From Bacteroidota bacterium (GTDB lineage Bacteria > Bacteroidota > Bacteroidia > NS11-12g > UBA955): a DNA stretch of 52,641 bases. Below are positions 12,750 through 37,261 of this stretch, piece by piece; within the stretch, counting starts at the first letter, position 1, and every line of letters begins with the position of its first letter. The notes under the pieces are model-generated. The model worked only from the letters and a program-made list of their open reading frames with translations, was not told the origin of the DNA and searched no databases. Location of the stretch: contig CANMBF010000018.1 of assembly GCA_947496065.1 (NCBI GenBank), forward strand, positions 1 through 52,641. The letters run 5' to 3'. Both the position numbers and the translations under genes were made by a program.

Positions 12750-15700
12750 TTAGAAGTCTAAGCCAAAGGAAAAGGTCGTCATACCTGTCAAAAATGTATT
12801 TTCTAAGTAGCCCCAAGCATGGTCGAGTTTTACATAGTGGTAAAGTATTTTGGCCCTTACGCCTATGCCTGTTGAATACAACATGGGATTGCGCTGAGAA
12901 GTAACACTCACAAAATAATTGGGCATGGTTTTAATTTGGGTGTTGAATGGATTGCTTTTGTCGTATGGCGAACTGCCTTGCCAAGCTGTGCCCATATCTA
13001 TAAAGCCAATGAACATAATGCTTCTTAAGAACTCGCTCGTAATGGGTTTTTGAATAAGGTATGAGAGCACAGGAATTCTTATTTCTGCATTAAGTAATGC
13101 AAAGTTAGAACCCCCTCTGCTATTGCGTTTGAACCCACGCATTGGCGCCACCAATGTTTGAAAGCTATATTCAGAAGTGGTAAGGGTTGGGATGCTATAA
13201 TTGAAATTAGAATTGCTATTCACTCTGCCTATTTCATTTTCAACCCCACCGAGATAATATCCCGTCTTTTGAGGGCCGATAGAAAAGGCTCCACTCAAAC
13301 GGGTAGCAATGTAAATTTGACGGTGTAATTTTAGATAGTATCGGCCATCGAAACCAGTGTTCATGATGAGCGCTTGTTTACTAATACCAAAATAATTATC
13401 GCTGTATATTTTGAATTTTAAACCTTCAAAAATATTTAAACCTTTACTTTGCACATTGTCGTAAACATATTCGGCACCTGCAGAAAAATAAACATTGCCG
13501 GTTGTCGGTTTTTCGAATGTAACCGAATCGGTGGCCAAGGCAATGAGACGGTCTTGTCTTAAGCCAGAATTCAAATTTATTTTAGAACGTTCGCTAAAGG
13601 GGTAACTAATGGTACACTTGAAGACTTCGGTCACCATTCTATTGGCAAGGTTCTCATTTGTTAATAGTCTACTCCTCCGATGAAATAGTAAGGATTGGTC
13701 CCAGCGGCCTTTTAAATTCGTGTATTTCAAAAAGTAGTCGGATGCACGAATGCTTACTGGAATTCTTGTGCCAGCTTCAAATTGATAATTTTTAAGATTG
13801 TCAGTAATTTTAGCTGTTAATAAAGTATTTAATAAGAAAGGATTATTGAGAATACTCTCGTTCACATTGGCTTGAAATAAATAATTATTCAGATAAGAAT
13901 TATCGAACAGGGTTACAGAATAATTAACACCAAAATTGAGTTTGGTTTTTTGAATGCTGATGGCGGATATTTTTTCATTCGGACTTTCTTCAGATTTCAA
14001 ATCATCTTTTTCATAATAACCACTTAAAAATATTTTTTTGTGGATATTTGCCATGGTATCCTTTTTAGTTTGTAATGGGTTACTTTTTACTGTATCTTTC
14101 AGTTGGGTTGTATCCATTTTTTTGATCTGAACCTTTGTTTCCGTTAGCCAATTGCGATAAGCTGTATTATGTGGATTCTCCACCTCATCTTCTATTAAAT
14201 TTACTGCTAATTCACCCACATAAATGCGGTAACGGTTTTTGAAAAATAGTAAGTCGGCAATCCCTTGTGAATTGCTAGCAACATCGTTATACAAAATCGA
14301 TCGCTTGTAGTTGGTAAGCTGGATAATTTTAGTGTCATCGCGTTTAATGGCATAATTATTTACAATGCCATTGGCATCGCTCAAAAAGCTGATGTAGTTA
14401 TTTTGCAACTCAATGGGTTGAAAATAATTGCTGAAAAATTTTGGATACCCTGCAATGCGTTGAATTGATTTGTTATTAATTTCAATCTCGAAAATTGAAT
14501 AGTAATTCGCAACGGTTTGTGTTGGCCATTCGCGGTTCGATGAGAAAAGCACACGCCCATTGTTAAATGAAAAACGTGGATTTAAATCATCATAAATATC
14601 ATTTGTAATATCGCTGATGGTTTTATTTTGTAGGTTGTAGATGACAATATCCGATTGCCCTTTGCGAATGATAGACATGACCATTTCGGTACCTTCCGAA
14701 TTAAATGTGAAGTCTTTGATAATGGGCACATTTTCCAATAAGGTGGTTTTTCCTTTTTTACCATCTGTATGATACCTGGTAAGCATGGATTGATTGTTTT
14801 TGAAAGTTATGATACTGATGGTTTTACCATCTTTATCCCAAGCAATTAAAGGATAATCATAAGACGCTTGTTGATTAAAAATTTGATGACCTCCTTTGAA
14901 AATAACATCACTTTTTTTTGTTTTGACAGTGTACAACACCACTTGGTAGCGACCGCGTGTATTAGTAACAATAGCAATCTGTTTGCCATCTGGACTCAAT
15001 TTGAATTGGGTGATTCTTTTCTTCGCCAATTTATCGGGTACATTTTCTTGTCCTTTGGGTAATTTAAAAGTACTCTCATCAAAACTGTATTTGTCTTTAT
15101 AATATAACTCCCAATCGTTGAGCATGCTGTTAATGGTTAAGCCTGTGTAATAATTAAAAGCACTTTCAACACTTCTGCCTATACATGTAATAAATACAAC
15201 ATTGCTGACAGAGCCCGCACCGTATTTTTCTTCCAAATAACGCCAAATGCTATGGCCTGCCAATACTTCATCTTCTTCCTGCAAACTTGTAAACGTATGG
15301 GCCTTGCCACTCAGTAAAAAGTCTTTTAAATAGTTATCATTTTCTACATTCCAACTTTCTGCCAAATATGCCACCAGCCCTTTGTAATACCAAGTTGGCA
15401 AAGTTAATAATGCTGAATTTTGAATGCGTTCTCTTAAGTCGCCACCATAAATAAACTCACTGATTAAAACCTCTGCAATGGCTCGTCTAGTTTGGCGATA
15501 TAAATCAATGCGACTGCCAGAAAAATAGATGCTGGAGGTGTTGTCGGTTAGATAGGAATAGCCGCTGTTGCTTTGTTGAAAATTGGTAAGGTTAATATTG
15601 CTGTTTTGATAATCTATAAAATGGTTATAGATGACTATTTTAATACCATTGCTTAAATTATAATTGAGTTTTGTTTCGAATTCTGGTAACTGTTGAGTAA

Positions 15701-15887
15701 CATAAGCGAATACCAATTTTGCTAATTCTTCTCCACCTTCGTGGTAAATAATTTCTATTTGATCTTGTTTTAAGCTGTAGGTTTCTGTTTTGTTTTGAAT
15801 CCTGCTTTGACCAAACTCAGTGTAGATTCCTTGGGCAACAATTTGACCAGCAAGGCAAGTAAAAAGAAAGGCGACTAGAAATCTCAC
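12750..15887 (-). CDS. TolB-like beta-propeller and outer-membrane beta-barrel protein
   Basis: 1045-residue surface or outer-membrane protein with a signal peptide (FLVAFLFTCLAGQIVAQG). The N-terminal 270 residues resemble a peptidase-MA-like domain, but I see no HExxH; the equivalent region reads AIAEVLISEF. A TolB/WD40-like propeller follows (about 280-600) with repeats such as KLSPDGKQIAIVTNTRGRY. The last 400 residues look like a surface-antigen beta-barrel ending in an aromatic residue (TTFSFGLDF), typical of BamA-inserted barrels. The start is GTG at 15887, chosen because a perfect -7 box ends 4 nt upstream and a signal peptide follows directly. Function unknown. Confidence 0.72.
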   Translation of the reverse strand: MRFLVAFLFTCLAGQIVAQGIYTEFGQSRIQNKTETYSLKQDQIEIIYHEGGEELAKLVFAYVTQQLPEFETKLNYNLSNGIKIVIYNHFIDYQNSNINLTNFQQSNSGYSYLTDNTSSIYFSGSRIDLYRQTRRAIAEVLISEFIYGGDLRERIQNSALLTLPTWYYKGLVAYLAESWNVENDNYLKDFLLSGKAHTFTSLQEEDEVLAGHSIWRYLEEKYGAGSVSNVVFITCIGRSVESAFNYYTGLTINSMLNDWELYYKDKYSFDESTFKLPKGQENVPDKLAKKRITQFKLSPDGKQIAIVTNTRGRYQVVLYTVKTKKSDVIFKGGHQIFNQQASYDYPLIAWDKDGKTISIITFKNNQSMLTRYHTDGKKGKTTLLENVPIIKDFTFNSEGTEMVMSIIRKGQSDIVIYNLQNKTISDITNDIYDDLNPRFSFNNGRVLFSSNREWPTQTVANYYSIFEIEINNKSIQRIAGYPKFFSNYFQPIELQNNYISFLSDANGIVNNYAIKRDDTKIIQLTNYKRSILYNDVASNSQGIADLLFFKNRYRIYVGELAVNLIEDEVENPHNTAYRNWLTETKVQIKKMDTTQLKDTVKSNPLQTKKDTMANIHKKIFLSGYYEKDDLKSEESPNEKISAISIQKTKLNFGVNYSVTLFDNSYLNNYLFQANVNESILNNPFLLNTLLTAKITDNLKNYQFEAGTRIPVSIRASDYFLKYTNLKGRWDQSLLFHRRSRLLTNENLANRMVTEVFKCTISYPFSERSKINLNSGLRQDRLIALATDSVTFEKPTTGNVYFSAGAEYVYDNVQSKGLNIFEGLKFKIYSDNYFGISKQALIMNTGFDGRYYLKLHRQIYIATRLSGAFSIGPQKTGYYLGGVENEIGRVNSNSNFNYSIPTLTTSEYSFQTLVAPMRGFKRNSRGGSNFALLNAEIRIPVLSYLIQKPITSEFLRSIMFIGFIDMGTAWQGSSPYDKSNPFNTQIKTMPNYFVSVTSQRNPMLYSTGIGVRAKILYHYVKLDHAWGYLENTFLTGMTTFSFGLDF

Positions 15888-20197: not shown

Positions 20198-22735
20198 ATG
20201 AAAACACTTCTTATTATTTTATGCCTACTTTCAGGGCACTGCGGCTATGCGCAAATTGTAGACAATTTTGATGATTCAGATTTAACAACAGCTCCTCTTT
20301 GGGAAGGGCAGCCCAATTCATTTTTAACCATTCAAAAGCAATTGAGAAGTAATTCAAATACCTTGAATGCTTCCTTTTATATTAGTACTTCTACCCAGCA
20401 GCAAAAGCTTGAAGAATGGCGACTGGACGCACGTTTGTTGTTTAACACCTCATCGCTCAACTATGTTGATTTTGTGCTCATGTCCGATTCCCTTAATTTA
20501 TTAAAAATGAAAAATGGTTACTTTGCTAGAATGGGCGGTACCACTGATGATGTAAGCTTTTATAAAATAAAGAACGGTGTAGAAACAAAATTGATTGATG
20601 GTATAGACAATGTGCTAAACACCAGTAACAATCAGTGGACGCTTCAAATCAAACGTTTAAAAAGTCACACCTTTGTGTTGCAACGAATGCCATTATTAGG
20701 TGGCCCGTCAATAAAAGAAGGCATTGCAGTCGATTCAGACTTTTTAACAGCATCCTTTATGGGGTTGCGCATTAAACAGAGCACCGCAAGCTTTCTTTAC
20801 AAACACTTTTTTGATAATTTGTACGGTGGTCGATTAATACGCGATAGCATTGCGCCATTGTTGGATAGTTTTGCTTTAAATGGGCCTAACCAATTGCGGT
20901 GTCATTTTAGTGAACCCTGTGATTCCAGCGCTTTAGTTGATGTATTGAGTTACACATTGACTGCTACAAATGAGCATCCAAAATCGATTGTTATTAAGCA
21001 GAACAATTGGGCCGTGTTAGATTTTCAAAATTATTTTATACCGAATGTTTTGCAATATCTGATGGTTGAGAACGTGAAGGATACCTCAGGTAATGAAATG
21101 CAAAACCATACACAATCCTTTTACTATTCTAAGCCCGATACTGCCCTTTGGCATCAATTGTTAATGACCGAATTGATGGTTGATCCTAATCCACCAATTG
21201 GTTTAGCAGATAAAGAGTATATTGAAATTACAAATCATTCAAAACTTTTTATCCAACTCAAGGGCTGCAATGTTCATGATGTATCCGGTCCGAAACCCTT
21301 GCCCGACACTATTTTACCACCTGATTCAATATTGGTATTGTATAATATTCCTTCCTTGAACAATACTGGAGACCGTGTTTGGCTTACAAATCAAAGGGGC
21401 GACATTATACACGAAGTAAATTACACCGACACTTGGTACCGCGATACCAAGAAACAAAATGGGGGTTGGAGTTTAGAGATGATTAATCCCAATAATGTAT
21501 GTGCAGGAAATAATAATTGGATGGGTAGTAGTGACCCTAAAGGCGGTACGCCAGGGATGCCTAATTCTACTTTTAAATTGGGTTTGGTGGACCATCAGGT
21601 GCTACAATTATTAAAGGCTTGGGCAATTAATGATTCTGTGATTCATTTAGTATTTGATGAAGAAATTGATAGCATTAATTCAAATCAATTCACGCTTTTA
21701 AAGGATGGTAAAACATGTGCTGTCAAAATTCAGAAGTATGTTAATCAATATGATGGATTAGAGTGGTTAATTAATTTTAAACCTTCGCCTGACAGTATTT
21801 ATCACTTTGAATTTTCTGGCATCAAGGATTGCGCGGGCAATGCAATAGTCAATGCACAATTTGAATTGCAATGGCCTTCTATGGCCCTTAAAAACGAGCT
21901 CATTTTTAATGAACTTTTATTTAATCCCAAAAGTGGCGGGTATGATTTTATTGAATTGTATAATAATAGCGCTAAGGCCATCGATTTAAGCAAGCATTTT
22001 ATTGCCGTATTAGACGAGCAAAACCAATATAAAAGCATTGAAAAGTTAAGCAGTACATCGCTTGTTTTAAAGCCCCATCAATATTTGTTATTAAGCCAAA
22101 TCGCCAATAAAATATGCATGGCCTATGGATGTAAAAATCCTGATGCTTTGTATCTTGATTTTAATAAAATGCCAAGCATGCCTGATGATTTAGGTAATTT
22201 ACTTTCGATTAATTTTAAAGGTCAGGTTATAGATAGTATTGCTTACGATGAAGATTGGCATTATCCATTGCTTTCGGATAAGGAAGGAGTGAGTTTAGAA
22301 AGAATAAGTTTTACAAATACAAGTCGCTCGCACGATAATTGGCACAGTGCAGCATCTGTAGTTGGATTTGCAACCCCTGGCTATTTAAATTCGCAAAGTG
22401 TTGGGGTGCATGGTGCGGAACAGTATTTTACTTTGCAAAACAAAACGGTTTCGCCCGATGAGGATGGGTTTGAGGATGTATTAATATTAAATTATCATTT
22501 GCCAAAACCAGATTATGCTACCACCATCAAAATATTTGATATAGAGGGTCGGTTAATTCGAGATTGGACCAACAATGCTACCTTAGGTACCGAAGGCTTT
22601 GTTAGTTGGAATGGCACAGATTACAATCAACAAAAAGCAGCCATCGGTTTATACATTGTAATGATAGAAAGTATTCACCCATCAGGTGATAGGATTAAGG
22701 AAAAAATAAGTTGTGTGGTTGCTGGGAAATTCTAA
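20198..22735 (+). CDS. Secreted lamin-tail-domain protein with FlgD-like C-terminal domain
   Basis: 845-residue exported protein. The signal peptide ends at GYAQ. The N-terminal 200 residues look like a concanavalin-type beta-sandwich ([14 protein letters not shown]). Two lamin-tail domains follow: one around [13 protein letters not shown] to [10 protein letters not shown], the second around [22 protein letters not shown] to VSLERIS. Between them are Ig-like segments. The C-terminal 85 residues ([16 protein letters not shown] to GLYIVMIE) resemble the FlgD Ig-like domain used as a secretion/anchoring tail in Bacteroidota. Probably surface-exposed or released; binding partner unknown. Its stop codon overlaps that of convergent gmhA. 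Confidence 0.8.
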
Positions 22736-27897: not shown

Positions 27898-28986
27898 CTA
27901 CAAGTCCGTTCCCGCTGCTCTAAACCATTTTTCAGGCACGTCGCCCTCGCGTGCAATTTCAAAATCCGATTCATTGCACCCAATGAATTTAGGGGCCGTC
28001 TTTTTACCCCCATTTTTTTCTGGAATCTGTAACCACCAGCGGCCTGTCAAATTGCTGTGCAAAAATACCATGTCTACTCCGCTTGGCGCGTGGCATTTGT
28101 AGACTTTGAAATTTCTGTGGTTCATGACCGGAAAATCGTTGAAACGGTTGTCAATGCCATCGCAGATGTACCATATCATTTGCGCGATTTGCGAAGCATC
28201 TATTACAGAATTTTCTGTCAGTGTAAAATTGCGGAGCAAATAATAATTGATGTTGTTTGATATACCAGCATATCGACACAAAGCACATGCTTCGTGGTTA
28301 AATAAACCATTCGGCATGGGTTGCACGGCACTTTGAAACTCTGAATATTTGATGGCCGATAAATCAAAATCGAAAATATCTGCTTGTCTTAAAAGGGGTT
28401 CCGACTGGGCCATATCGGCTCGCAGTGTGCCTAAACGAACACATTCGGTAAATGCATCTGCCACCTGTTGCATGGAATCATTGGTGGTTAAATAACTTTG
28501 AAAACCCAAATACGAAGCATGAAACAAACGTTTTTTAGAATTGAGCAAATACCCCAAATCTGTTTCATTATAATTTAAGAATGGCGATACGAGTGCATAG
28601 TCGATCGATTTGAAATCTATTCCTTTCATCAGTCCTTGCGCGTAATTGTGTTGCTCGCCAATAATGATGGGAATAATATTGTTTTCTTTTAATGTTAAAA
28701 GACATTCCGCCAAGCCTGCATTGATGTTTTTTTCGGTGCCTGTATGTTTTAAATTCCCGAAATCGGCCAATTCAATACCGTTCAATTTATGACTGTAATT
28801 GTAGAATTGTTTTCTCACTAAATCGGCATTTTTACCAAGACCAATAATGGCCACATCGACTTGCGAAACATCCGGAAATTTTCCTGAATTGAGTTTTATT
28901 TCAGACCCAATCAAACCTTGTTTTTTACCGATTTCTTTTAATAAAGTTTTGCTAATTGGTTCAAAAAATTCCTTTAACATATGCAT
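27898..28986 (-). CDS. Ureohydrolase (arginase/formimidoylglutamase) family protein, degenerate metal site
   Basis: 362-residue protein with the ureohydrolase layout but altered ligands. The first motif (GGDHS in arginase) reads GEQHN, the second (DxHxD) reads SIDYALVSP and has lost its ligands, and the third (DxDxxDP) reads DFDLSAIKYSE. The C-terminal part has a conserved CALCRYAG segment. Bacteroidota carry a family of this type annotated as arginase or formimidoylglutamase. A dinuclear manganese site as in arginase seems unlikely, so activity is uncertain. Either ATG at 28986 or 28980 could start it. FtcD for the formimidoyl pathway is encoded 21 kb away in this window. Confidence 0.7.
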   Translation of the reverse strand: MHMLKEFFEPISKTLLKEIGKKQGLIGSEIKLNSGKFPDVSQVDVAIIGLGKNADLVRKQFYNYSHKLNGIELADFGNLKHTGTEKNINAGLAECLLTLKENNIIPIIIGEQHNYAQGLMKGIDFKSIDYALVSPFLNYNETDLGYLLNSKKRLFHASYLGFQSYLTTNDSMQQVADAFTECVRLGTLRADMAQSEPLLRQADIFDFDLSAIKYSEFQSAVQPMPNGLFNHEACALCRYAGISNNINYYLLRNFTLTENSVIDASQIAQMIWYICDGIDNRFNDFPVMNHRNFKVYKCHAPSGVDMVFLHSNLTGRWWLQIPEKNGGKKTAPKFIGCNESDFEIAREGDVPEKWFRAAGTDL

Positions 28987-29039
28987 GGTTCAATATTGAT
29001 ACAAATATCCGAATTTTGCACCACTTAAATTTCAACATA

Positions 29040-30047
29040 ATGATAGTAACAGGTGCAAATGGTTTTTTGGGTAGCTATGTAGTTAGCGCCTTGTTACAAA
29101 AAGGGCATACTGTTATTGGTTTAAAAAGATCAGAGGCATCGACCCAAACGTTTTATAAAATTTTAAAGTATGAATTAAAGGATCAATACAGCGCTTTGAT
29201 TCAAAACTTCAAATGGGAAGCGACCGATATTTTAGATATTACCACGCTCGATGAGGTGTTAACTGCTGGTGCAACTGTTTTTCACTGTGCGGCAAAAGTG
29301 GCTTTTAATCAAAAAGAGCACGATGCCATGATGGCTGTGAATGTTGAGGGTACCGCCAATGTTGTGAATGCCTGTTTGAAAAATGGCGTAAAGCAATTGG
29401 TGTATGTGAGCAGTACTGCTGCTTTTGGAAGAACCGACCATGAAGCCTTAATAGATGAACAAACAGAGTGGGAGGATAGCGACCACAATACCCAATATGC
29501 CGTTAGCAAACATCTAGCCGAACTTGAGGTTTGGCGAGGTATAGAAGAAGGTTTGAATGCCAGCATTGTCAATCCAGGAATTATCATGGGGTATGGCGAT
29601 TCACAAAAAGGATCTTGCAGATTGTTTAGAAATGTGGCCAAAGGCATGCGCTTTTATACCAACGGAGTGAATGGTTTTGTTGATGTGCGCGATGTTGCGA
29701 AGGTGATGTTAACCCTCGCTGAAAAAGAATTATGGGGTCAACGGTTTGTGTTGGTGAGCGAGAATTTGAGCTATCGCACCGTGTTGAATGCCATTGCCAC
29801 AGCCATGCAAGTGCCCTTGCCAAATATTGAATTAAATCCAGCGTATAAAAAACTGTTTTTAATGCTGGTGCGCCTACAATTGTTCTTTTATCCGAAAGCT
29901 ACCATTACGCCAGAAACGGTGCGTACTTCTTTGAAGAAACATAACTACAACAATGCAAAGATTTTAAGTGCGATTGACTTTACTTTTCGTCCACTTGCCG
30001 AAACCATAGAAACGGCAGGACAGCAATATCAAAAAGAAGGTCTCTAA
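29040..30047 (+). CDS. NAD-dependent epimerase/dehydratase (extended SDR)
   Basis: 335-residue extended SDR. The nucleotide-binding motif TGANGFLGS lies at residues 4-12, followed by DILD-type contacts, the catalytic Ser region LVYVSSTAAFG and an intact active-site YAVSK. A downstream VNPGIIMGYGD is typical of dihydroflavonol-reductase-like and sugar epimerase members. The open frame reaches back to 28956, but ATG 29040 begins directly at MIVTGANG and is chosen. It is divergent from the ureohydrolase gene with about 50 bases between starts. Substrate unknown. Confidence 0.86.
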   Translation: MIVTGANGFLGSYVVSALLQKGHTVIGLKRSEASTQTFYKILKYELKDQYSALIQNFKWEATDILDITTLDEVLTAGATVFHCAAKVAFNQKEHDAMMAVNVEGTANVVNACLKNGVKQLVYVSSTAAFGRTDHEALIDEQTEWEDSDHNTQYAVSKHLAELEVWRGIEEGLNASIVNPGIIMGYGDSQKGSCRLFRNVAKGMRFYTNGVNGFVDVRDVAKVMLTLAEKELWGQRFVLVSENLSYRTVLNAIATAMQVPLPNIELNPAYKKLFLMLVRLQLFFYPKATITPETVRTSLKKHNYNNAKILSAIDFTFRPLAETIETAGQQYQKEGL

Positions 30048-30060
30048 GAAAATTAAAAAG

Positions 30061-30145
30061 TGCCCACGACAAGATTCGAACTTGCACAACCTTACGGTCA
30101 CTACCACCTCAAAGTAGCACGTCTACCAATTTCGCCACATGGGCA
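30061..30145 (-). tRNA. tRNA-Leu (anticodon GAG)
   Basis: 85 nt, CCA not encoded. Acceptor TGCCCAT pairs with GTGGGCA (one G-T). Long variable arm of a class II tRNA. Anticodon stem CTACT/GGTAG with loop TTGAGGT gives anticodon GAG. T-loop TTCGAAT. Confidence 0.95.
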
Positions 30146-30203
30146 ACTTTTACAGTGCAATATTAGTTGATTTTCTTGAGGGTTAAAAAAATTTTTGAAA
30201 CAA

Positions 30204-30233
30204 AAAAAAGGCTGAAATGATTCAGCCTTTTTT
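30204..30233. terminator. Terminator of tandem unit 1
   Basis: AAAAAAGGCTGAA, loop ATGA, TTCAGCCTTTTTT: perfect 13-bp stem including the A/T run. Nearly identical hairpins end units 2 and 3. Confidence 0.88.
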
Positions 30234-30262
30234 ATAATATTTTAGCGCTTGATTAATCTTCT

Positions 30263-31003
30263 TTAATGTTGAATGCTAAGCAATGATTGGTAATTTGCAG
30301 TTTCAGATGCTAATAAAATTAGATAATTACCATTTGCTATTCCTTCAATTGGTATTTGAAAATTTGCATCTGCACTGGCAATTAAATAGGAATTAATAAG
30401 GCGGCCTTGCATATCTATAATTGTAATATTGCATGTTTGCTTTATTAACTCTGATGGAATTGAGATATTGAATTGCGTATTGGCAGGGTTAGGGAAAATG
30501 GTTAATTGATTTTTAAAAACACCACTTACTCCTGCGTGCTTAGGATCATATACTTGTTGAAATGTAACATCTGAACTATTATCGTTTCTTTCGGGAATGG
30601 TTTCTGGAATGATATCAAATTCCTTTCTGTTTCTTAAAGTTCCTGAAACAGTTAAATTGTATTGTGGGTTATTTACAGAATCTGTTACATCTAAATTGCC
30701 TGCAATATCAATCGAATCCCCTTTTGCAATTGAACGAGTAAAACGGTATTTAAAAGATTGGAAAATATCTACTCCAAAATTTTTACTTCTGTTTATGTAA
30801 TAGAAAAATGAATCAATTGGTCGTATAGTATCAAATCCTGGATTGTAAATACGGATTTTATAGTACAATTTGCCAGGTGAGTAAACAATGGTTTTTATTG
30901 ATGGCTCAATAACTTTAACCTTAATGTTTATATAGCGACAACATTGGGCATTACCTTGAATAGAAAAAATAGATAGGACAAAGGCTAATATTAGATTTTT
31001 CAT
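30263..31003 (-). CDS. Tandem family A, copy 1: secreted CARDB-like protein with T9SS sorting domain
   Basis: 246 residues. The signal peptide ends at GNAQ and is followed by CCRYINIKVKVIEPS. Residues 25-155 look like a CARDB-type Ig domain: a YNPG turn, beta strands and ERNDNSSDVTF near its end. The last about 80 residues are a type A T9SS sorting domain (LTIFPNPANTQFNI, IIDMQGRLI, GNYLILLA). Expected route: Sec to periplasm, T9SS to surface. It follows family B copy 1 by 20 bases. 413 bp of its 3' half are identical by eye to copy 3, while residues about 66-98 differ. Function unknown. Confidence 0.8.
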   Translation of the reverse strand: MKNLILAFVLSIFSIQGNAQCCRYINIKVKVIEPSIKTIVYSPGKLYYKIRIYNPGFDTIRPIDSFFYYINRSKNFGVDIFQSFKYRFTRSIAKGDSIDIAGNLDVTDSVNNPQYNLTVSGTLRNRKEFDIIPETIPERNDNSSDVTFQQVYDPKHAGVSGVFKNQLTIFPNPANTQFNISIPSELIKQTCNITIIDMQGRLINSYLIASADANFQIPIEGIANGNYLILLASETANYQSLLSIQH

Positions 31004-31023
31004 ACTTTACAAAATTATTAAAT

Positions 31024-31827
31024 TTACTTTACAAATCGTTCGCAATAACAACAGAAGGTAAGAGGTTGAGTGTATGTAATTGGTGGACATTCGGGATCCT
31101 CTTCATTACAAGGGAATATTTTAATTTCTAAATCAAAAGTAAAACACCGGTTAACCTCAGGTGTAGGTGGTACAATCGATGTATCGCAATATTCTGAGTT
31201 AATATGTATGGTTTGATCTTCTACACTATTTTTGTCTGTAATATCCATACTCCAACCTGGATTTGGTGTTAAACCTATATTGTTATATGTTGGAAAGCCA
31301 GGAGGAGGTGTACCTGGGGGTAATTTTAACGTCAATTTATAATCACAAAGGCTATTTAAGTTGCTAAAAAAATTTAATCTGAAGCTTTCAAAGGGTAAGC
31401 ATGGTTTATATTTATCAGTAACAATAAATATTGGATCAACGAAGTTAACATCCATGGGCACGAAACCACCAAAAACCGTATCCTTTAGAACTGGAGATAT
31501 TCTAATGGAATCATATGCAGAATAATAATCTAACTCTAAGTATTTGTAAGCGCTAACTAAATTATACGAAGTAGGAGAACTTGGATGATGTTGAACTTGG
31601 TATACATATATGGAATCTATGTCAGCAAGATTTGTAAAGCTAATATGTATTTTTCTAGGTCCAGTGCCTTTAAGCAATTGAACTTTATGTATGCTATCAA
31701 GGCTAGTAATTTCGATTTTTTGATAGCAATTAGTAATAACTAAATGGCCAGTAGTTGCCGTATGTCCATTTTTGTAATTTAACATTAATGCTAAGAAGCA
31801 AATAATGATTTGAAGTTTTTTTGTCAT
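31024..31827 (-). CDS. Tandem family B, copy 1: secreted ten-cysteine protein
   Basis: 267 residues with a signal peptide (MTKKLQIIICFLALMLNYKN). No family I recognise and no T9SS sorting domain. The mature protein has ten cysteines, all conserved in copy 2, including NCYQK near the start and the closing FCCYCERFVK. The C-terminal half is well conserved with copy 2 (IFIVTDKYKPCLPFE, LKLPPGTPPPGFP, PPTPEVNRCFTFDL), while residues about 40-120 diverge strongly. Even cysteine number and export suggest disulfide bonds. Always placed upstream of a family A gene, so the two products may form a pair; that is inference. Confidence 0.75.
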   Translation of the reverse strand: MTKKLQIIICFLALMLNYKNGHTATTGHLVITNCYQKIEITSLDSIHKVQLLKGTGPRKIHISFTNLADIDSIYVYQVQHHPSSPTSYNLVSAYKYLELDYYSAYDSIRISPVLKDTVFGGFVPMDVNFVDPIFIVTDKYKPCLPFESFRLNFFSNLNSLCDYKLTLKLPPGTPPPGFPTYNNIGLTPNPGWSMDITDKNSVEDQTIHINSEYCDTSIVPPTPEVNRCFTFDLEIKIFPCNEEDPECPPITYTQPLTFCCYCERFVK

Positions 31828-31904
31828 ACTTTTTTTGTTTTAGAGGTTTGAATAAATGATAATTTTAAATTGTATTTAACAAACTAAACCTTTATTATTC
31901 AATT

Positions 31905-31946
31905 AAAAAAGCGTAGAACTACGTAAAAAATTTACGTAATTCTACG
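31905..31946 (-). promoter_or_regulatory. Terminator-like leader hairpin upstream of B copy 1
   Basis: Read on the minus strand: 16-bp stem with a 3-base loop, then GCTTTTTT. One stem position is a G-U wobble in this strand. It lies about 80 bases before the B start. A compensatory change relative to copy 2 preserves the stem. Candidate attenuator, or the end of a small RNA. Confidence 0.65.
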
Positions 31947-32124
31947 AACGCAAAATAGGACATATTTTCACAATCAACTTACTGTTATATAGTTTACTTT
32001 ATTTGCAAAATAATTGTTATACTGAAATAATATAATTATTAAAATAAATAGTTGTCGTGAAAAGTTGAATCCAATAAAAAAGTTCATAAAAATAGGGTCA
32101 AGATTCATGTAAAATTTTGAAACA

Positions 32125-32154
32125 AAAAAAGGCTGAAATAATTCAGCCTTTTTT
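32125..32154. terminator. Terminator of tandem unit 2
   Basis: AAAAAAGGCTGAA, loop ATAA, TTCAGCCTTTTTT; same stem as units 1 and 3, one loop base different. Confidence 0.88.
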
Positions 32155-32183
32155 ATAATAACTGAGAGATTAATTAATCTTCT

Positions 32184-32924
32184 TTAATGTTGAATGCTAA
32201 GCATCGATTGGTAATTTGCAGTTTCAGATGCTAATAAAATTAGATAATTACCATTTGCTATTCCTTCAATTGGTATTTGAAAATTTGCATCTGCACTGTA
32301 AATTGAATAGGAATTAATAAGGCGGCCTTGCATGTCTATAATTTTAATACTGCATGTTTGCTTTATTAACTCTGATGGAATGGAGATATTGAATTGCGTA
32401 TTGGCAGGGTTAGGGAAGATGGTTAATTGATTTTTAAAAACACCACTTACTCCTGCGTGCTTAGGATCATATACTTGTTGAATAGTAACTTGAGAGCTAT
32501 TATCGTTTCTTTCCACAGTAGTTTCCTCAATAATATCGTATGTCTTTCTATTTCTTAAAATGCCAGAGACTGTTAATGAATATTGAGGATTACTTACCGA
32601 ATCTGTTATATCTAAATTCCCAACAATGTCTATTGAATCTCCTTTAGCAACTGAACGTGTAAATTGGTACTTAAAAACTTTATATATGTATGGTCCAAAA
32701 TTTCTAATAATCGTTGTTGAATATATAAATGAATCAATTGATCTTATTGTATCTGAACCAGGATTATATATTCGTATTTTATAGTATAATTTACCAGGGG
32801 AATAAACTATGGTTTTCGATGACGGTTCGATTAATTTAACCTTAATATTTATATAGCGACAACATTGGGCATTAGCACGATCTATAAAAGCTATAAGAAT
32901 AATTAAAAATATTGAATGTTTCAT
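32184..32924 (-). CDS. Tandem family A, copy 2: secreted CARDB-like protein with T9SS sorting domain
   Basis: 246 residues, the same length as copies 1 and 3 when ATG 32924 is used (MKHSIFLIILIAFIDRANAQ). The frame runs back to 32963, but that start would overlap B copy 2; ATG 32924 leaves a 19-base gap, like the 20-base gap in unit 1. The signal peptide differs completely from copies 1 and 3. After CCRYINIKVK the same Ig-like domain and T9SS sorting domain follow. Substitutions are spread along the protein, so this is the most divergent A copy. Copy 3 borrows its middle block from a sequence like this one. Confidence 0.8.
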   Translation of the reverse strand: MKHSIFLIILIAFIDRANAQCCRYINIKVKLIEPSSKTIVYSPGKLYYKIRIYNPGSDTIRSIDSFIYSTTIIRNFGPYIYKVFKYQFTRSVAKGDSIDIVGNLDITDSVSNPQYSLTVSGILRNRKTYDIIEETTVERNDNSSQVTIQQVYDPKHAGVSGVFKNQLTIFPNPANTQFNISIPSELIKQTCSIKIIDMQGRLINSYSIYSADANFQIPIEGIANGNYLILLASETANYQSMLSIQH

Positions 32925-32943
32925 TGTGTACAAATTTATAAAA

Positions 32944-33750
32944 TTACTTGACGAAAAGTTCACAATTACAACAAAATGTTAAGGACTGAGTAAATGTTAA
33001 TGGGGGACATTCGGGGTCATCCAAAATACAAGGTTTAATCATAATATCTAAATCAAAAGTAAAACATCGATTAACTTCTGGAGTTGGAGGGACAATTGTG
33101 GTATCGCAATATTCTGAATTTATTGGAAGTGTTTGAGATAAACTTCCATTTTTATCAGTAATGTCCTTTGACCAACCTGGATTAGGAAATAGACCTATGT
33201 TATTGTATGATGGAAACCCAGGAGGTGGTGTACCTGGGGGTAATTTTAATGTAAGTGTATAGTCACAAATATTGCTTAAATTACTATAAAAATTTAATTT
33301 GAAATTTTCAAAAGGCAGACATGGTTTATCTTTATCTGTAACAATGAAAATAGGGTCAACAAAGTTAATGTCAAAGGGAATGGCAGGAGAGAACGCGCCT
33401 GGTTTTAAAACAGGTGTAATTCTTATGTAATCTTCACTTGTAGTATAATCAAATGCTCCTGTATACCCTGCATCTGTTAACCAAGTATAAGTTGGTGTTG
33501 TACTTCCTGGAGAATTGATTTTGTATATTGAAAAATAATTAAGATCAAGTGCATTTGTAAACTCAATATGTACTTTGTTAGTTCCCCCGGGTCCATTTCC
33601 CTTAAGAAAATTATAGATTCCTGTTCCACCCTCAACTTTTTGGTAACAATTTGTTACTCGTACTTGTCCAAAAGGAGCTTGAGATTTGGCAATGTTAGCA
33701 TTAACTACAAACGCCAATAAAATAAGAATGGTTTTAAATTTTTCTTTCAT
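32944..33750 (-). CDS. Tandem family B, copy 2: secreted ten-cysteine protein
   Basis: 268 residues; signal peptide ILLAFVVNANIAKSQ. All ten cysteines of copy 1 are kept, ending FCCNCELFVK. The half after IFIVTDKDKPCLPFE is closely similar to copy 1, while the preceding region is divergent and includes a Gly-rich GNGPGGTNKVHIEF. First gene of unit 2, followed 19 bases later by A copy 2. A terminator-like hairpin lies about 50 bases upstream of its start. No known domain recognised. Confidence 0.75.
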   Translation of the reverse strand: MKEKFKTILILLAFVVNANIAKSQAPFGQVRVTNCYQKVEGGTGIYNFLKGNGPGGTNKVHIEFTNALDLNYFSIYKINSPGSTTPTYTWLTDAGYTGAFDYTTSEDYIRITPVLKPGAFSPAIPFDINFVDPIFIVTDKDKPCLPFENFKLNFYSNLSNICDYTLTLKLPPGTPPPGFPSYNNIGLFPNPGWSKDITDKNGSLSQTLPINSEYCDTTIVPPTPEVNRCFTFDLDIMIKPCILDDPECPPLTFTQSLTFCCNCELFVK

Positions 33751-33801
33751 AATATTACTGTGATTTTAAATTTCAACAAACTAAACCTTTAGTATTCAAT
33801 T

Positions 33802-33843
33802 AAAAAAGCGTAGAATTACGCAAAAAATTTGCGTAATTCTACG
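33802..33843 (-). promoter_or_regulatory. Terminator-like leader hairpin upstream of B copy 2
   Basis: Perfect 16-bp stem on the minus strand with a 3-base loop, followed by GCTTTTTT. The arms are themselves near-palindromes (GCGTAGAATTACGC). About 50 bases before the B start. Pair 33821-33831 is C-G here and T-A in copy 1. Confidence 0.65.
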
Positions 33844-34022
33844 TACGCAAAATAGGACATATTTGTGCAATCAACTTACTGTTAAATAGTTGACTTTATT
33901 TGCAAAAAAATTGTTATACTGAAAGATTATAATTATTAAAATAAATAGTTGTCGTAAAAAGTTGAATTAAATAAAAAAGCGTATAAAAATAGGGTCATGA
34001 TTCATATAAAATTTTGAAACAA

Positions 34023-34052
34023 AAAAAAGGCTGAAATGATTCAGCCTTTTTT
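34023..34052. terminator. Terminator of tandem unit 3
   Basis: AAAAAAGGCTGAA, loop ATGA, TTCAGCCTTTTTT, the same hairpin as unit 1. Confidence 0.88.
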
Positions 34053-34081
34053 ATAATATTTTTGAAACTAATTAATCTTCT

Positions 34082-34822
34082 TTAATGCTGAATGCTAAGC
34101 ATCGATTGGTAATTTGCAGTTTCAGATGCTAATAAAATTAGATAATTACCATTTGCTATTCCTTCAATTGGTATTTGAAAATTTGCATCTGCACTGGCAA
34201 TTAAATAGGAATTAATAAGGCGGCCTTGCATATCTATAATTGTAATATTGCATGTTTGCTTTATTAACTCTGATGGAATTGAGATATTGAATTGCGTATT
34301 GGCAGGGTTAGGGAAAATGGTTAATTGATTTTTAAAAACACCACTTACTCCTGCGTGCTTAGGATCATATACTTGTTGAAATGTAACATCTGAACTATTA
34401 TCGTTTCTTTCGGGAATGGTTTCTGGAATGATATCAAATTCCTTTCTGTTTCTTAAAGTTCCTGAAACAGTTAAATTGTATTGTGGGTTATTTACAGAAT
34501 CTGTTACATCTAAATTCCCAACAATGTCTATTGAATCACCTTTCGGAACGGGACGTGAAAAACGGTACCGAAAGGATTTATAGATAAATGGCCCAAAATT
34601 TCTATTTATTGTTATTGAATATATAAATGAATCAATTGGTCTAATGGTATCAAATCCTGGATTGTAAATACGGATTTTATAGTACAATTTGCCAGGTGAG
34701 TAAACAATGGTTTTTGCTGATGGCTCAATAACTTTAACCTTAATGTTTATATAGCGGCAACATTGGGCATTGCCTTGAATAGAAAAAATAGATAGGACAA
34801 AGGCTAATATTAGATTTTTCAT
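34082..34822 (-). CDS. Tandem family A, copy 3: lone secreted CARDB-like protein with T9SS sorting domain
   Basis: 246 residues; signal peptide identical to copy 1 (ends GNAQ). T9SS sorting domain identical to copy 1 except one residue near the end (Met for Leu), where it matches copy 2. The middle block (residues about 66-108) instead matches copy 2, for example FIYS and DSIDIVGNLD. It therefore looks like a recombinant of the other two. No family B gene lies upstream; only a decayed piece of the spacer (34884-34965) is found there. Expressed alone or from that remnant. Confidence 0.8.
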   Translation of the reverse strand: MKNLILAFVLSIFSIQGNAQCCRYINIKVKVIEPSAKTIVYSPGKLYYKIRIYNPGFDTIRPIDSFIYSITINRNFGPFIYKSFRYRFSRPVPKGDSIDIVGNLDVTDSVNNPQYNLTVSGTLRNRKEFDIIPETIPERNDNSSDVTFQQVYDPKHAGVSGVFKNQLTIFPNPANTQFNISIPSELIKQTCNITIIDMQGRLINSYLIASADANFQIPIEGIANGNYLILLASETANYQSMLSIQH

Positions 34823-34883
34823 TTATAACAAATTTATTGATTTACTTTATAAAATTAAATAATCAAATATAATATTTATTTAG

Positions 34884-34965
34884 TAAAATAAATACTTGTC
34901 GTAAAAGTTGAATCCAATTTAAAAGCGCAATAAAATACGGTTACGATTCATTTAAATTTTTGACA
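34884..34965. repeat. Decayed remnant of the tandem-unit spacer
   Basis: Shares AAAATAAATA, TTGTCGTAAAAGTTGAATCCAA and GATTCATTTAAA-type segments with the outer part of the spacer copies. The leader hairpin and a B gene are missing between it and A copy 3. Confidence 0.6.
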
Positions 34966-34969
34966 TAAA

Positions 34970-34994
34970 AAAAGCCCCGAACTACGGGGCTTTT
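34970..34994. terminator. Terminator of the Cys/Lys-rich protein gene
   Basis: AAAAGCCCCG, loop AACTA, CGGGGCTTTT: perfect 10-bp stem downstream of the minus-strand gene ending at 35015. Confidence 0.87.
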
Positions 34995-35014
34995 GTAAAT
35001 ATTTGAGAACTTAA

Positions 35015-35305
35015 TTAATCTTCTTTAATGGCTTCGCTTTTTTTCTTGCAGCAAGAACTTGCTTTCTTTTGGCAACATGCTTTTTTGTTGCTTTTTTTAG
35101 CAGTTGTGGTGGCTGGCGTTGCCGCTGGCGCAGGTTCCGTGCTAGTAGCAGTTGGAACTACTTGAGGCAGGGTAGAAGGTTGTAAACCTTTTGGTGTTTC
35201 TTGTTTAGTGCCTCCTGTATTGGTAGCGCCTGTTGAGCTTGTTTGTGCATTGCTGATGACAGCTACACCAACAAAAAGTGCGAGGGTTAAAATTAGTTTT
35301 TTCAT
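35015..35305 (-). CDS. Small secreted protein with Cys/Lys-rich tail
   Basis: 96 residues from ATG 35305, which begins a clean signal peptide (MKKLILTLALFVGVAVISNAQ); a start 10 codons upstream is possible but adds a non-signal extension. The mature part is a Thr/Pro/Ala-rich flexible linker followed by a tail with two double cysteines (KKACCQKK and SSCCKKK) and an acidic end. It could bind metal or be cross-linked to the envelope; no family recognised. It lies between the tandem A/B locus and psd and has its own terminator. Confidence 0.65.
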   Translation of the reverse strand: MKKLILTLALFVGVAVISNAQTSSTGATNTGGTKQETPKGLQPSTLPQVVPTATSTEPAPAATPATTTAKKSNKKACCQKKASSCCKKKSEAIKED

Positions 35306-35342
35306 TTTTGTATTTAAATTAATAGTAATAAACATTCAATAA

Positions 35343-35999
35343 TTAAGCCAAAGTTGCAACCACAGTTTCGCCTCCACGTGTTTTTTGTTGCAATTGCACA
35401 TTCACAGTGGCGGTTAAAGGCAAATAAATATCAATGCGTGAACCGAATTTGATAAAACCCATTTCATCGCCTTGCTTTACTTCTATTCCTTCTTTGACAT
35501 AATAAACAATGCGTTTTGCTAAAGCACCCGCAATTTGTCTGAACAACACTTCGGCTCTCGATCCTGCAATGACAACAGTGGTTCTTTCGTTCTCTGTTGA
35601 TGATTTTGGATGCCAAGCTACCAAGTATTTACCAGGATGGTACTTTGCATATTTAACAATTCCACTGATAGGGTTTCTGTTCACGTGCACATTCACAGGA
35701 CTCATAAAAATACTGATTTGTTTTCTTTTGTCCTTAAAATATTCGGGTTCTTCAACCTCTTCGATTACCACTACAGTGCCATCGGCTGGCGCTATGATAT
35801 GGTTTTCGTTCATCACAGTATTGCGCGCAGGGTTGCGGAAAAACTGAAGAATAAGTATAAAAAAGACCAATGAAATGATCAATATAATTTTAGTCGCCAA
35901 ATGCGCCTCGCCAAACAATGCATGCGAAGCAAGGTTGATACCTGCTAAAATAAGCAGGGTCACCATGATGATTTTATAGCCTTCTCTGTGAAATAACAT
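35343..35999 (-). CDS. psd: Phosphatidylserine decarboxylase (short, archaeal-like type)
   Basis: Converts phosphatidylserine to phosphatidylethanolamine at the inner membrane. 218 residues: two N-terminal hydrophobic segments (IIMVTLLILAGINLASHAL and IILIISLVFFILILQFF), then the catalytic domain with APADGTVV, FMSPVNVHVNRNPISG and YHPGKY. The self-cleavage site that yields the pyruvoyl group is the GS in FGSRID. The length fits the short proenzyme family common in Bacteroidota. Its start overlaps the stop of the glutamate dehydrogenase gene by one base, so the two are co-transcribed. Confidence 0.93.
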   Translation of the reverse strand: MLFHREGYKIIMVTLLILAGINLASHALFGEAHLATKIILIISLVFFILILQFFRNPARNTVMNENHIIAPADGTVVVIEEVEEPEYFKDKRKQISIFMSPVNVHVNRNPISGIVKYAKYHPGKYLVAWHPKSSTENERTTVVIAGSRAEVLFRQIAGALAKRIVYYVKEGIEVKQGDEMGFIKFGSRIDIYLPLTATVNVQLQQKTRGGETVVATLA

Positions 36000-37261
36000 T
36001 AGAATACGCCTCTGAATTTTTGAGTAGTAGCTACTTTATCGATTGCAACTACATAAGCTGCTGTACGCATGCTGCATTTGTGGGTTGTACCTGTTTCGAA
36101 AACAGTATCAAAAGCCATTTTCATAACGCGATCAGCACGTCTGTTAACACGCTCTTCGGTCCAGAAATAACCCATGCGGTTTTGTACCCACTCGAAGTAT
36201 GATACAGTTACACCACCAGCATTTGCTAAGATATCTGGTACTACAATAATGCCTTTGTCGTTTAAGATTTTATCAGCGTTTGCACTTGTTGGTCCGTTAG
36301 CACCTTCAACAATTAATTTTGCTTTGATATTACCAGCATTCGCATCGGTAATTTGATCTTCCATTGCTGCAGGAACTAATATATCGCAAGGCAATTCTAA
36401 TAATTCCGCATTGTTAATTTTTTCGCCACCAGTGAATCCACCTAAGTTGCCATTCGCTTTGGTATAAGCCATGGCTTCTTCAACTTTGATACCGTTTGGA
36501 TTGTGGTATCCGCCAGTTACATCTGAAATACCAACGATTTTAACGCCTAGCATTTCGATTAATTTAGCAGAGATAGAACCAACGTTACCAAAACCTTGTA
36601 CCACACAAGTACACTCTTCTGGTTTTAAACCCATTTTAGCTAAAGCCGAACGGGTACATACCATGACACCTCTACCAGTTGCTTCAACTCTACCAAGTGA
36701 ACCACCCATAGAGATTGGTTTACCAGTAATGACTGCAGGTGTATATTGCCCTTTGATTTTAGAATATTCATCTACTATCCAAGCCATTTCTTGCTGACCA
36801 GTGTTCATATCTGGCGCAGGAATATCTTTATCAGGACCGAAAATATCGCTCATAGAAGCAGCGTAAGCTCTGGTTAAACGCTCAAGCTCACCTTTGCTCA
36901 TGCTCTTTGGGTCGCACTTAATGCCACCTTTACCACCACCGTAAGGTATACCTACAACAGCTGTTTTCCATGTCATCCAAGCAGCCAAGGCTTTAACTTC
37001 ATCTAAAGATACATCCATAGAATAACGGATACCACCTTTTGATGGGCCAAGTGTTGTGCTGTGTTGCACACGGTGACCTTCGAACACTTGAACTTTACCA
37101 TTGTCCATGATAACCGGCAGATGCACGGTAACAATTCTGGCAGGGTATTTTAAGGTATTGTAGGCTGACTCATCAAGACCTATAATTTTTGCGGCTTCAT
37201 CGAAGCGTTTCATCATCGAATCCAATGGATTCAGGTTACTGTGGATGGTTTCGTTACTCAT
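35999..37261 (-). CDS. Glutamate dehydrogenase (Glu/Leu/Phe/Val dehydrogenase family)
   Basis: 420-residue oxidative/reductive glutamate dehydrogenase linking 2-oxoglutarate and ammonium to glutamate. Substrate domain: GPSKGGIRY, KTAVVGIPYGGGKGGIKCDP with the catalytic lysine, PAPDMNTGQQEMAWI. Coenzyme domain: Rossmann loop VQGFGNVGS and the conserved EGANGPTS. The length matches the hexameric about 420-residue group, often NAD-linked. A -7 box lies 41 nt upstream. psd follows with a one-base overlap; the functional link is not obvious. Confidence 0.93.
   Translation of the reverse strand: MSNETIHSNLNPLDSMMKRFDEAAKIIGLDESAYNTLKYPARIVTVHLPVIMDNGKVQVFEGHRVQHSTTLGPSKGGIRYSMDVSLDEVKALAAWMTWKTAVVGIPYGGGKGGIKCDPKSMSKGELERLTRAYAASMSDIFGPDKDIPAPDMNTGQQEMAWIVDEYSKIKGQYTPAVITGKPISMGGSLGRVEATGRGVMVCTRSALAKMGLKPEECTCVVQGFGNVGSISAKLIEMLGVKIVGISDVTGGYHNPNGIKVEEAMAYTKANGNLGGFTGGEKINNAELLELPCDILVPAAMEDQITDANAGNIKAKLIVEGANGPTSANADKILNDKGIIVVPDILANAGGVTVSYFEWVQNRMGYFWTEERVNRRADRVMKMAFDTVFETGTTHKCSMRTAAYVVAIDKVATTQKFRGVF

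What the first reader, a model, noticed from the sequence alone, without database searches (positions are those of the whole stretch)
30263..34822. Tandem two-gene secreted module (B-A, B-A, lone A), a candidate undescribed surface system
Seen: three copies of a T9SS-sorted CARDB-like protein (A, always 246 residues) and two copies of a ten-cysteine secreted protein (B). Order is B then A with 19-20 bases between them, and each unit ends in the same terminator. I recognise no characterised system with this pair. Inference: A is displayed on the surface via T9SS and B, which has no sorting domain, associates with it. Repeated units with divergent internal segments suggest selection for variants, as in adhesion, recognition or interbacterial or host interaction.
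Basis: partly seen in the sequence, partly recalled or inferred. Interest (0 to 1): 0.8.

Follow-up and report, generated by a model that had tools for sequence, protein, structure and literature searches.

The report
Paired secreted surface-protein operon, duplicated
A bacterium of the Bacteroidota carries tandem copies of an undescribed gene pair, a ten-cysteine secreted protein and a partner tagged for display on the cell surface, and in some related species the first gene sits behind repeat tracts of the kind that switch surface proteins on and off.

Summary
In detail: three A genes (246 residues, type A T9SS sorting tail) and two B genes (ten conserved cysteines) lie as B-A, B-A, A on the minus strand. 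The module is real beyond this genome. B is nearly confined to one bacterial order (17 of 108 genomes), and in 19 of the 19 B copies where the next gene can be seen, an A gene follows. In 13 of the 17 copies outside the window two or more A genes follow; first- and second-position A genes are two families, so the ancestral operon is B-Aα-Aβ. This genus shows only Aα, and in the window the B-A unit is repeated next to a tRNA-Leu; three relatives have the empty site. The divergent segments of A are recombination mosaics under purifying selection. Best reading: a T9SS-displayed surface complex with B as the variable, loss-prone part. B's export route, the A-B contact and the function are inferred.

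The parts
34082..34822 (-). A3, lone A (Aα type), hydrophobic N-terminus + N-domain + type A T9SS sorting domain; unit 3, B lost
32944..33750 (-). B2, ten-cysteine secreted protein, 268 aa; N-domain (aligned columns 26-133) 93% identical to that of G004
32184..32924 (-). A2 (Aα type), 246 aa from the internal ATG
31024..31827 (-). B1, ten-cysteine secreted protein, 267 aa; N-domain only 38% identical to B2
30263..31003 (-). A1 (Aα type), 246 aa; aligned codons 59-104 diverge from A3 (dS 1.38) while the other segments do not (dS 0.03-0.09)
33797..33843 (-). Hairpin (16-bp perfect arms, 3-nt loop) followed by a T-tract, upstream of B2; leader/terminator-like element
31900..31946 (-). Same hairpin + T-tract upstream of B1
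34023..34052 (.). Terminator T1 after unit 3 (13-nt arms)
32125..32154 (.). Terminator T1 after unit 2
30204..30233 (.). Terminator T1 after unit 1; the same terminator follows the glue-like gene in the empty site of G006, so it probably belongs to the host locus
34903..34974 (.). 72-nt remnant of the B upstream region in front of lone A3 (82% to the copy at 32060): unit 3 once had the B leader
30060..30144 (-). tRNA-Leu(gag) bordering the inserted module
35015..35335 (-). Flanking gene (New_glue match below its cut-off); the module lies between it and tRNA-Leu

Best explanation
The locus is a reduced and tandemly repeated copy of an order-specific operon B-Aα-Aβ that builds a surface structure through the type IX secretion system. 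SHOWN by sequence: the A genes end in type A sorting domains; B has ten conserved cysteines but no sorting domain in this order; an A gene follows B in every testable copy; a distant B carries its own sorting tail; the N-domain of B differs strongly between copies; some relatives have repeat tracts at the start of B, and B is often broken. INFERRED: B and A are exported to the periplasm (hydrophobic N-termini seen by eye); Aα and Aβ are exported and anchored on the surface; B, stabilised by about five disulfides, is held there by Aα or carried out with it; B's N-domain (weakly modelled as Ig/Fn3-like) is the contact or recognition part, present in distinct types and in some species switched on and off, which suits a part exposed to phages, predators or competitors. 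In the window genome Aβ is absent, the B-A unit was repeated in place, and the third unit lost B with its leader.
For: A sorting tails: 3 of 3 window copies, 32 of 33 aligned A-family members at E <= 0.1. A's modelled tail aligns with solved T9SS tails (8qb1_A Z 9.4, rmsd 2.2, 75 aligned; 8glk_D Z 8.8, rmsd 2.2, 72 aligned). An A gene follows B in 19 of 19 testable copies of 20 found in 17 of 108 genomes. First- and second-position A genes separate on a tree of 43 (1 change, support 95/94, 0 of 500 shuffles as low). B and Aα distances correlate, r 0.88 over 13 copies, 0 of 2000 permutations as high (species history not controlled). B-T9SS tail fusion in G184 (PF18962 E 1.1e-8) with all ten cysteines. 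Repeat tracts at the 5' end of B in 4 of 17 copies: 4 of 6 strict tracts lie in 8.0 of 254.2 kb; background 8 in 400 kb. Empty sites in G006, G004 and G014.
Against: B itself has no sorting signal, so nothing shows that it crosses the outer membrane in this order; the fusion is a single case outside the order. A persists where B is broken (5 of 20 copies) and as A-A pairs without B at 3 loci plus a lone A in G011, so A does not need B. The window's own B copies have no repeat tract; with looser limits only 4 of 27 tracts lie at B (binomial 0.0097), and the zone was chosen after seeing the tracts. dN/dS shows constraint, not diversification. Repeat-tract numbers come from single assemblies; no length variation within a population was seen. 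The structure models are weak (B mean pLDDT 64.9, A 57.3), and the A-B contact was not modelled. No ligand or phenotype is known, and the T9SS machinery of this genome was not searched for.
Confidence: 0.55

Rival explanations
1. B is a periplasmic helper (chaperone or holdase) dedicated to its A partners and never reaches the surface.
For: B has no sorting tail, lies first in the operon and is cysteine-rich; within the order every testable B copy has an A behind it.
Against: The distant homologue in G184 has its own sorting tail and no A within the 16 kb examined. A survives loss of B. Repeat tracts and strongly different N-domains would be unusual for a chaperone.
Confidence: 0.2
2. The genes are an interbacterial or anti-host effector pair: B a toxin-like protein, tandem A genes its immunity or display partners.
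For: Tandem A copies (three closely similar in G018) and patchy distribution resemble immunity arrays.
Against: No toxin, enzyme or defence-type match for B in Pfam, NCBIfam or PADLOC; the one PADLOC row was a weak partial one for A3 (E 4.1e-4). A carries an export tail, which does not fit an immunity protein. Absence of a match excludes nothing.
Confidence: 0.1
3. A non-adaptive tandem duplication of ordinary T9SS cargo genes of no special joint function; adjacency is simple co-inheritance.
For: 19 further places in this genome match the A query, nearly all in its tail region; dN/dS < 1 and homogenised duplicates; shared neighbours in four genomes of genus g17.
Against: Adjacency holds for 19 of 19 testable copies while the genomic site differs among G000, G004 and G014; gene order B-Aα-Aβ with two position-specific A families; tract enrichment at B.
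Confidence: 0.15

Closest known systems
Type A T9SS cargo proteins (Por_Secre_tail PF18962 / TIGR04183), e.g. RemA, mirolase, gingipains (examples partly recalled; mirolase, NucA and RemA tails appear)
   Same: A ends in this domain above the curated cut-offs and its modelled tail aligns with solved T9SS tails.
   Different: The roughly 140-residue N-domain of A has no family match, and A is tied to a tail-less partner gene B.
SprF/PorP-like shuttle and type B cargo gene pairs (PMC12618676, abstract and outline seen; PMC9143113, start of abstract in a search listing)
   Same: Linked genes in which one member serves the secretion or anchoring of the other.
   Different: There the partner is a PorP/SprF-like shuttle and the cargo has a type B tail; here the tail is type A on A, and B is a small cysteine-rich protein with no family match.
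Phase-variable contingency loci with repeat tracts at the 5' end of surface genes (recalled: lic, opa and similar genes)
   Same: Tract between an upstream ATG and the signal-peptide-like segment of B in G018, G025:C1 and G025:C2.
   Different: Not present in the window's own copies; length variation not observed.
Mosaic surface proteins of Porphyromonas gingivalis (PMC5266723, abstract and outline seen)
   Same: Exchange of segments of surface proteins, as between the A copies here.
   Different: Other proteins, and exchange between strains; here the mosaic is within a tandem array.

Membership tests
Type A T9SS cargo (for A) | C-terminal Por_Secre_tail domain at the end of the protein | tested here: met
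   PF18962 45-46 bits against cut-off 27 and TIGR04183 30-31 bits against cut-off 23, all three copies
Type A T9SS cargo (for A) | N-terminal signal peptide | tested here: inconclusive
   Hydrophobic N-terminus ending NAQ seen by eye; no predictor available
Type A T9SS cargo (for A) | Working T9SS machinery in the genome (PorV, SprA/Sov, GldKLMN) | not tested
   Only indirect: 19 further matches to the A query, nearly all in its tail region, elsewhere in the genome
Type A T9SS cargo (for B) | C-terminal sorting domain | tested here: not met
   No Pfam or NCBIfam match for window B and no sorting-domain match for 12 aligned B sequences; only the distant B of G184 has one
CARDB (for A N-domain) | Match to the CARDB family | tested here: inconclusive
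   Not listed for any of 33 members at E <= 0.1; low-confidence beta-rich model
Phase-variable contingency locus (window copies) | Repeat tract in the 5' coding or leader region that can change frame | tested here: not met
   No strict or loose tract at B1 or B2
Phase-variable contingency locus (relatives of B) | Repeat tract in the 5' coding or leader region that can change frame | tested here: met
   4 of 15 copies outside the window have a tract; in 3 an ATG stands just before it
Phase-variable contingency locus (relatives of B) | Tract length varies among cells of a population | not testable with these tools
   No reads held
Toxin-immunity pair | Recognisable toxin or immunity domain | tested here: inconclusive
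   None found for B; absence of a match excludes nothing

The most novel reading that the evidence does not exclude
B is exported by the T9SS in trans: it has no sorting tail of its own and crosses the outer membrane bound to Aα, whose tail sorts the pair, so that a loss-prone and in some species phase-switched recognition subunit rides on a stable anchored carrier. A tail-less passenger carried by a tailed partner would be a new route through the T9SS as far as I know (recall; the wording searched listed no paper on it by title or start of abstract); the G184 fusion would be the single-chain version.
Probability: 0.25. Interest if true: 0.8.

Novelty: new variant of a known kind. Interest (0 to 1): 0.55.

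Why it matters
It adds two protein families without assigned function and a conserved operon to the T9SS world, with a natural fusion that suggests on which side of the membrane B belongs, and it gives a testable case of a tail-less protein depending on a tailed partner. Repeat tracts at B in some relatives point to on/off switching of a T9SS-linked surface protein.

Tried and rejected
Diversifying selection: rejected. dN/dS is below 1 in every A and B segment compared after the first 20-25 codons (several segments have saturated dS); one signal-peptide segment (A2 against G004, codons 1-20) reached 1.13.

Mobile element: no match for B2 or for residues 1-160 of A3 in 72,556 plasmid records, and no B relative in viral contigs (3 pattern matches, none confirmed). 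No recombinase was recognised by eye in the ORFs next to the module; these were not scanned for one. A single-protein scan of genome contigs found one relative, the G004 record.

Module-specific regulator site: the hairpin upstream of B was compared in four copies only. 3 of 16 pairs change on both sides and 98.4% of cells pair, against 26.6-46.9% when slid; covariation 0.240, reached by 6 of 500 shuffles. But 172 of 500 shuffles reach the number of pairs with changes on both sides and 389 of 500 the number of pair types. Similar hairpins occur at five other places in G004, G006, G011 and G014 with other genes next to them, and a weaker one in the own genome on C34, so I treat it as a general leader or terminator element. 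No Rfam family but tRNA reached threshold in 28000-37000.

Programmed readthrough of B: the in-frame stops in G040, G081 and G056:C4 lie at different places, which fits decay.

Common origin of the A and B domains: profile comparison weak (probability 16.6 over 27 columns).

Fold searches: B gave Ig/Fn3-like matches (best Z 7.3, rmsd 3.2, 94 aligned, SpyCEP 6vjb), within the range the tool states for common folds. The rows for A span mostly its tail; the top row is a DUF3244 protein (3d33_B, Z 10.4, rmsd 2.0, 78 aligned), followed by T9SS tails and many Fn3 domains. PDB sequence searches: B none; A weak hits only (best E 0.0068).

Papers: of what the searches listed (one search listed 15 of 281), no title or start of abstract concerns this gene pair. 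This covers only the open library and those words.
Full report
OBSERVATION. The window holds five genes on the minus strand; in the direction of transcription they read A3, B2-A2, B1-A1. A1, A2 and A3 are 246 residues each, A2 if its internal ATG is used. Gaps between B and A are 19 and 20 nt. The same 13-nt-arm terminator follows each A. All three A copies pass the cut-offs for Por_Secre_tail and TIGR04183. The window's B copies match nothing in Pfam, NCBIfam or PADLOC; B2 and the B profile match no PDB sequence; a few aligned relatives have chance-level Pfam rows (three families, one member each, E 0.19-0.37). In the own genome (2.9 Mb) B occurs only here, twice. The A N-domain occurs three times here by single-sequence search, plus one distant relative by profile.

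DISTRIBUTION. With a profile of B (12 rows), 17 of 108 genomes of the order matched, in 7 of 24 genera. In a class-wide sample 9 of 395 matched: seven belong to the order (own genome included), one (G184) is a clear relative outside it, and one (G367, E 6.6e-4, eight stops) is probably noise. In a phylum-wide sample 2 of 395 matched, the own genome and G367. B is therefore close to order-specific. The A N-domain profile matched 43 of 108 genomes, but these fall into groups. The strong matches are the B-linked genes. Of 19 further stretches mapped, 13 show an A-like gene (or two) behind a 969-998-residue gene (helicase-like by recall, not tested); no B was found in the part of the 19 that was listed.

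LINKAGE. The 20 B copies in the order include the two of the window. One (G055) is cut off by its contig end. In the other 19 the next gene on the same strand is an A gene; in G035 both B and this first A are fragments. Gaps run from -8 to 32 nt, apart from 257 nt in G056:C4, where B ends early at a stop, and about 77 nt in G035. Two or more A genes follow in 13 of the 17 copies outside the window (four in G018); G004 and G014 have one, and two copies are cut by contig ends. On a tree of 43 A N-domains, first-position and second-position genes fall on the two sides of one branch (26 against 17 rows, support 95/94, 0 of 500 shuffles as low). A genes under 150 residues were left out of the tree, positions at contig ends (G052, G078) were assumed, and the genes of the window's genus, one A per B or alone, were counted as first. 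Aα and Aβ persist as A-A pairs without recognisable B at G023:C1, G042 and G056:C5, and G011 has a lone Aα. B and Aα distances correlate (r 0.88 over 13 copies, 0 of 2000 permutations as high, which corrects); shared species history was not removed.

THE FUSED HOMOLOGUE. In G184 a 346-residue protein holds the B domain with all ten cysteines, followed by its own Por_Secre_tail (E 1.1e-8, 35.7 bits against a cut-off of 27). No A was found in the 16 kb around it, and 1 of the 5 genomes held of its order has it. This is the best sign that B belongs on the surface, but it is one case.

HOW THE LOCUS AROSE. Of 17 genus genomes, 14 gave the psd anchor. Beyond the own genome and G011, 12 were mapped: G006, G004 and G014 have GDH, psd, glue-like gene, tRNA-Leu and epimerase together with no module; the other nine have other neighbours there and say nothing. 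The terminator after every A in the window is the one found between glue-like gene and tRNA in the empty site of G006 (G004 and G014 have others), and at least 16 nt from the end of the glue-like gene recur across each A stop codon (compared by eye, family D8). Lone A3 keeps 72 nt of the B upstream region but neither hairpin nor B. So the unit was probably repeated in place and the third lost B. G011 has one A there that differs from A3 at 18 sites and from A1 at 58; at the last three distinguishing sites it matches A1 and not A3, and at three others it matches only A2. This fits loss by recombination between copies; descent from an older single copy is not excluded.

MOSAICISM, NOT DIVERSIFYING SELECTION. 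A1 and A3 have dS 1.38 in aligned codons 59-104 but 0.03-0.09 in the other segments. A1 and A2 have dS 0.07 in the tail but 0.71-1.52 before it. dN/dS is below 1 in every segment compared after the first 20-25 codons; one signal-peptide segment reached 1.13. The ends are homogenised, most simply by recombination, and an old divergent block remains. The N-domains of B1 and B2 are 38% identical and the C-terminal parts 79%; B2 and the B of G004 are 93% identical in the N-domain with dN/dS 0.03. B therefore comes in distinct, constrained N-domain types.

SWITCH-LIKE TRACTS AND BROKEN B. In relatives the 5' end of B carries (TCAAACT)7 in G046, (CT)10 in G018, (ACCT)7 in G025:C1 and a run of 23 C in G025:C2. 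In the last three an ATG stands just before the tract and a signal-peptide-like segment after it. In G018 and G025:C1 the assembled ATG is out of frame with B (G018 has a second, in-frame ATG after the tract). In G025:C2 a further frameshift follows the signal-peptide-like segment. In G046 no usual start codon was seen. Seventeen of the 20 copies were examined. Of 6 strict tracts in 254.2 kb of these loci, 4 lie in the 8.0 kb around B starts (binomial 1.4e-5; the zone was chosen after seeing the tracts). With looser limits it is 4 of 27 (0.0097). Background is 8 in 400 kb of sampled stretches of G025, G046 and G018, and 0 in 300 kb of other loci. The window's own copies have no tract. B has an in-frame stop in G040, G081 and G056:C4, and only remnants were found in G044 and G035: 5 of 20 broken, with both A genes intact next to four of them.

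STRUCTURE. Only window and L022 sequences were used. B: mean pLDDT 64.9, N-domain residues 28-137 around 80, Ig/Fn3-like, matches no better than generic. A: mean pLDDT 57.3, good only in the tail, which aligns with DUF3244 proteins and solved T9SS tails.

MECHANISM AND STATUS (my estimates). Very likely: A is T9SS cargo (about 0.93). Likely: B acts at the surface (about 0.65). Open: a stable B-Aα complex (about 0.5) and recognition or adhesion as the role (about 0.45). T9SS substrates are recognised by a C-terminal domain (abstract of PMC12618676); PMC10994853 uses a fusion lacking it as control (passage seen, outcome not in the passage). How B would leave the cell without one is the sharp question. 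PMC12618676 shows the nearest known logic, gene-linked shuttles specific for their cargo. PMC12635249 (passages) shows disulfide links inside the T9SS/gliding machinery, but between other proteins.

NOVELTY. The gene pair and both families lack a description in the libraries searched. The kind of thing, a variable T9SS surface module, is known. I rate it a new variant of a known kind.

Noticed in passing
L197:16455-18873 (G025:C2): A (TG)19 tract lies just upstream of a 786-residue gene whose C-terminal end looks like a T9SS tail by eye: possibly another switchable T9SS cargo in the same species.
   Followed up: partly
L191:17797-17957 (G025:C1): Runs of 12 G and 13 C about 150 nt apart, the first inside a lipoprotein-like reading frame.
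   Followed up: no
G000:C3:58559-58981 (L121:5560-6282) and L122-L130, L132, L134, L138: Separate A-like, T9SS-tailed genes behind a 969-998-residue gene in 13 of 19 stretches mapped, not linked to B.
   Followed up: partly
L181:4946, L182:5135, L183:5375, L184:2881, L185:4677: The hairpin plus T-tract found upstream of B recurs with other genes next to it in the genus; a family of repeated terminator- or leader-like hairpins.
   Followed up: partly
window 12750-15887: A 1045-residue ORF without any Pfam match at E <= 1e-5.
   Followed up: no
window 20198-22735: An 845-residue protein with two stretches matching the Lamin Tail Domain (E 3.1e-17).
   Followed up: no
L046:8025-10382 (G018): Three closely similar tandem Aα genes followed by one Aβ: a second, independent amplification of the A part alone.
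   Followed up: partly
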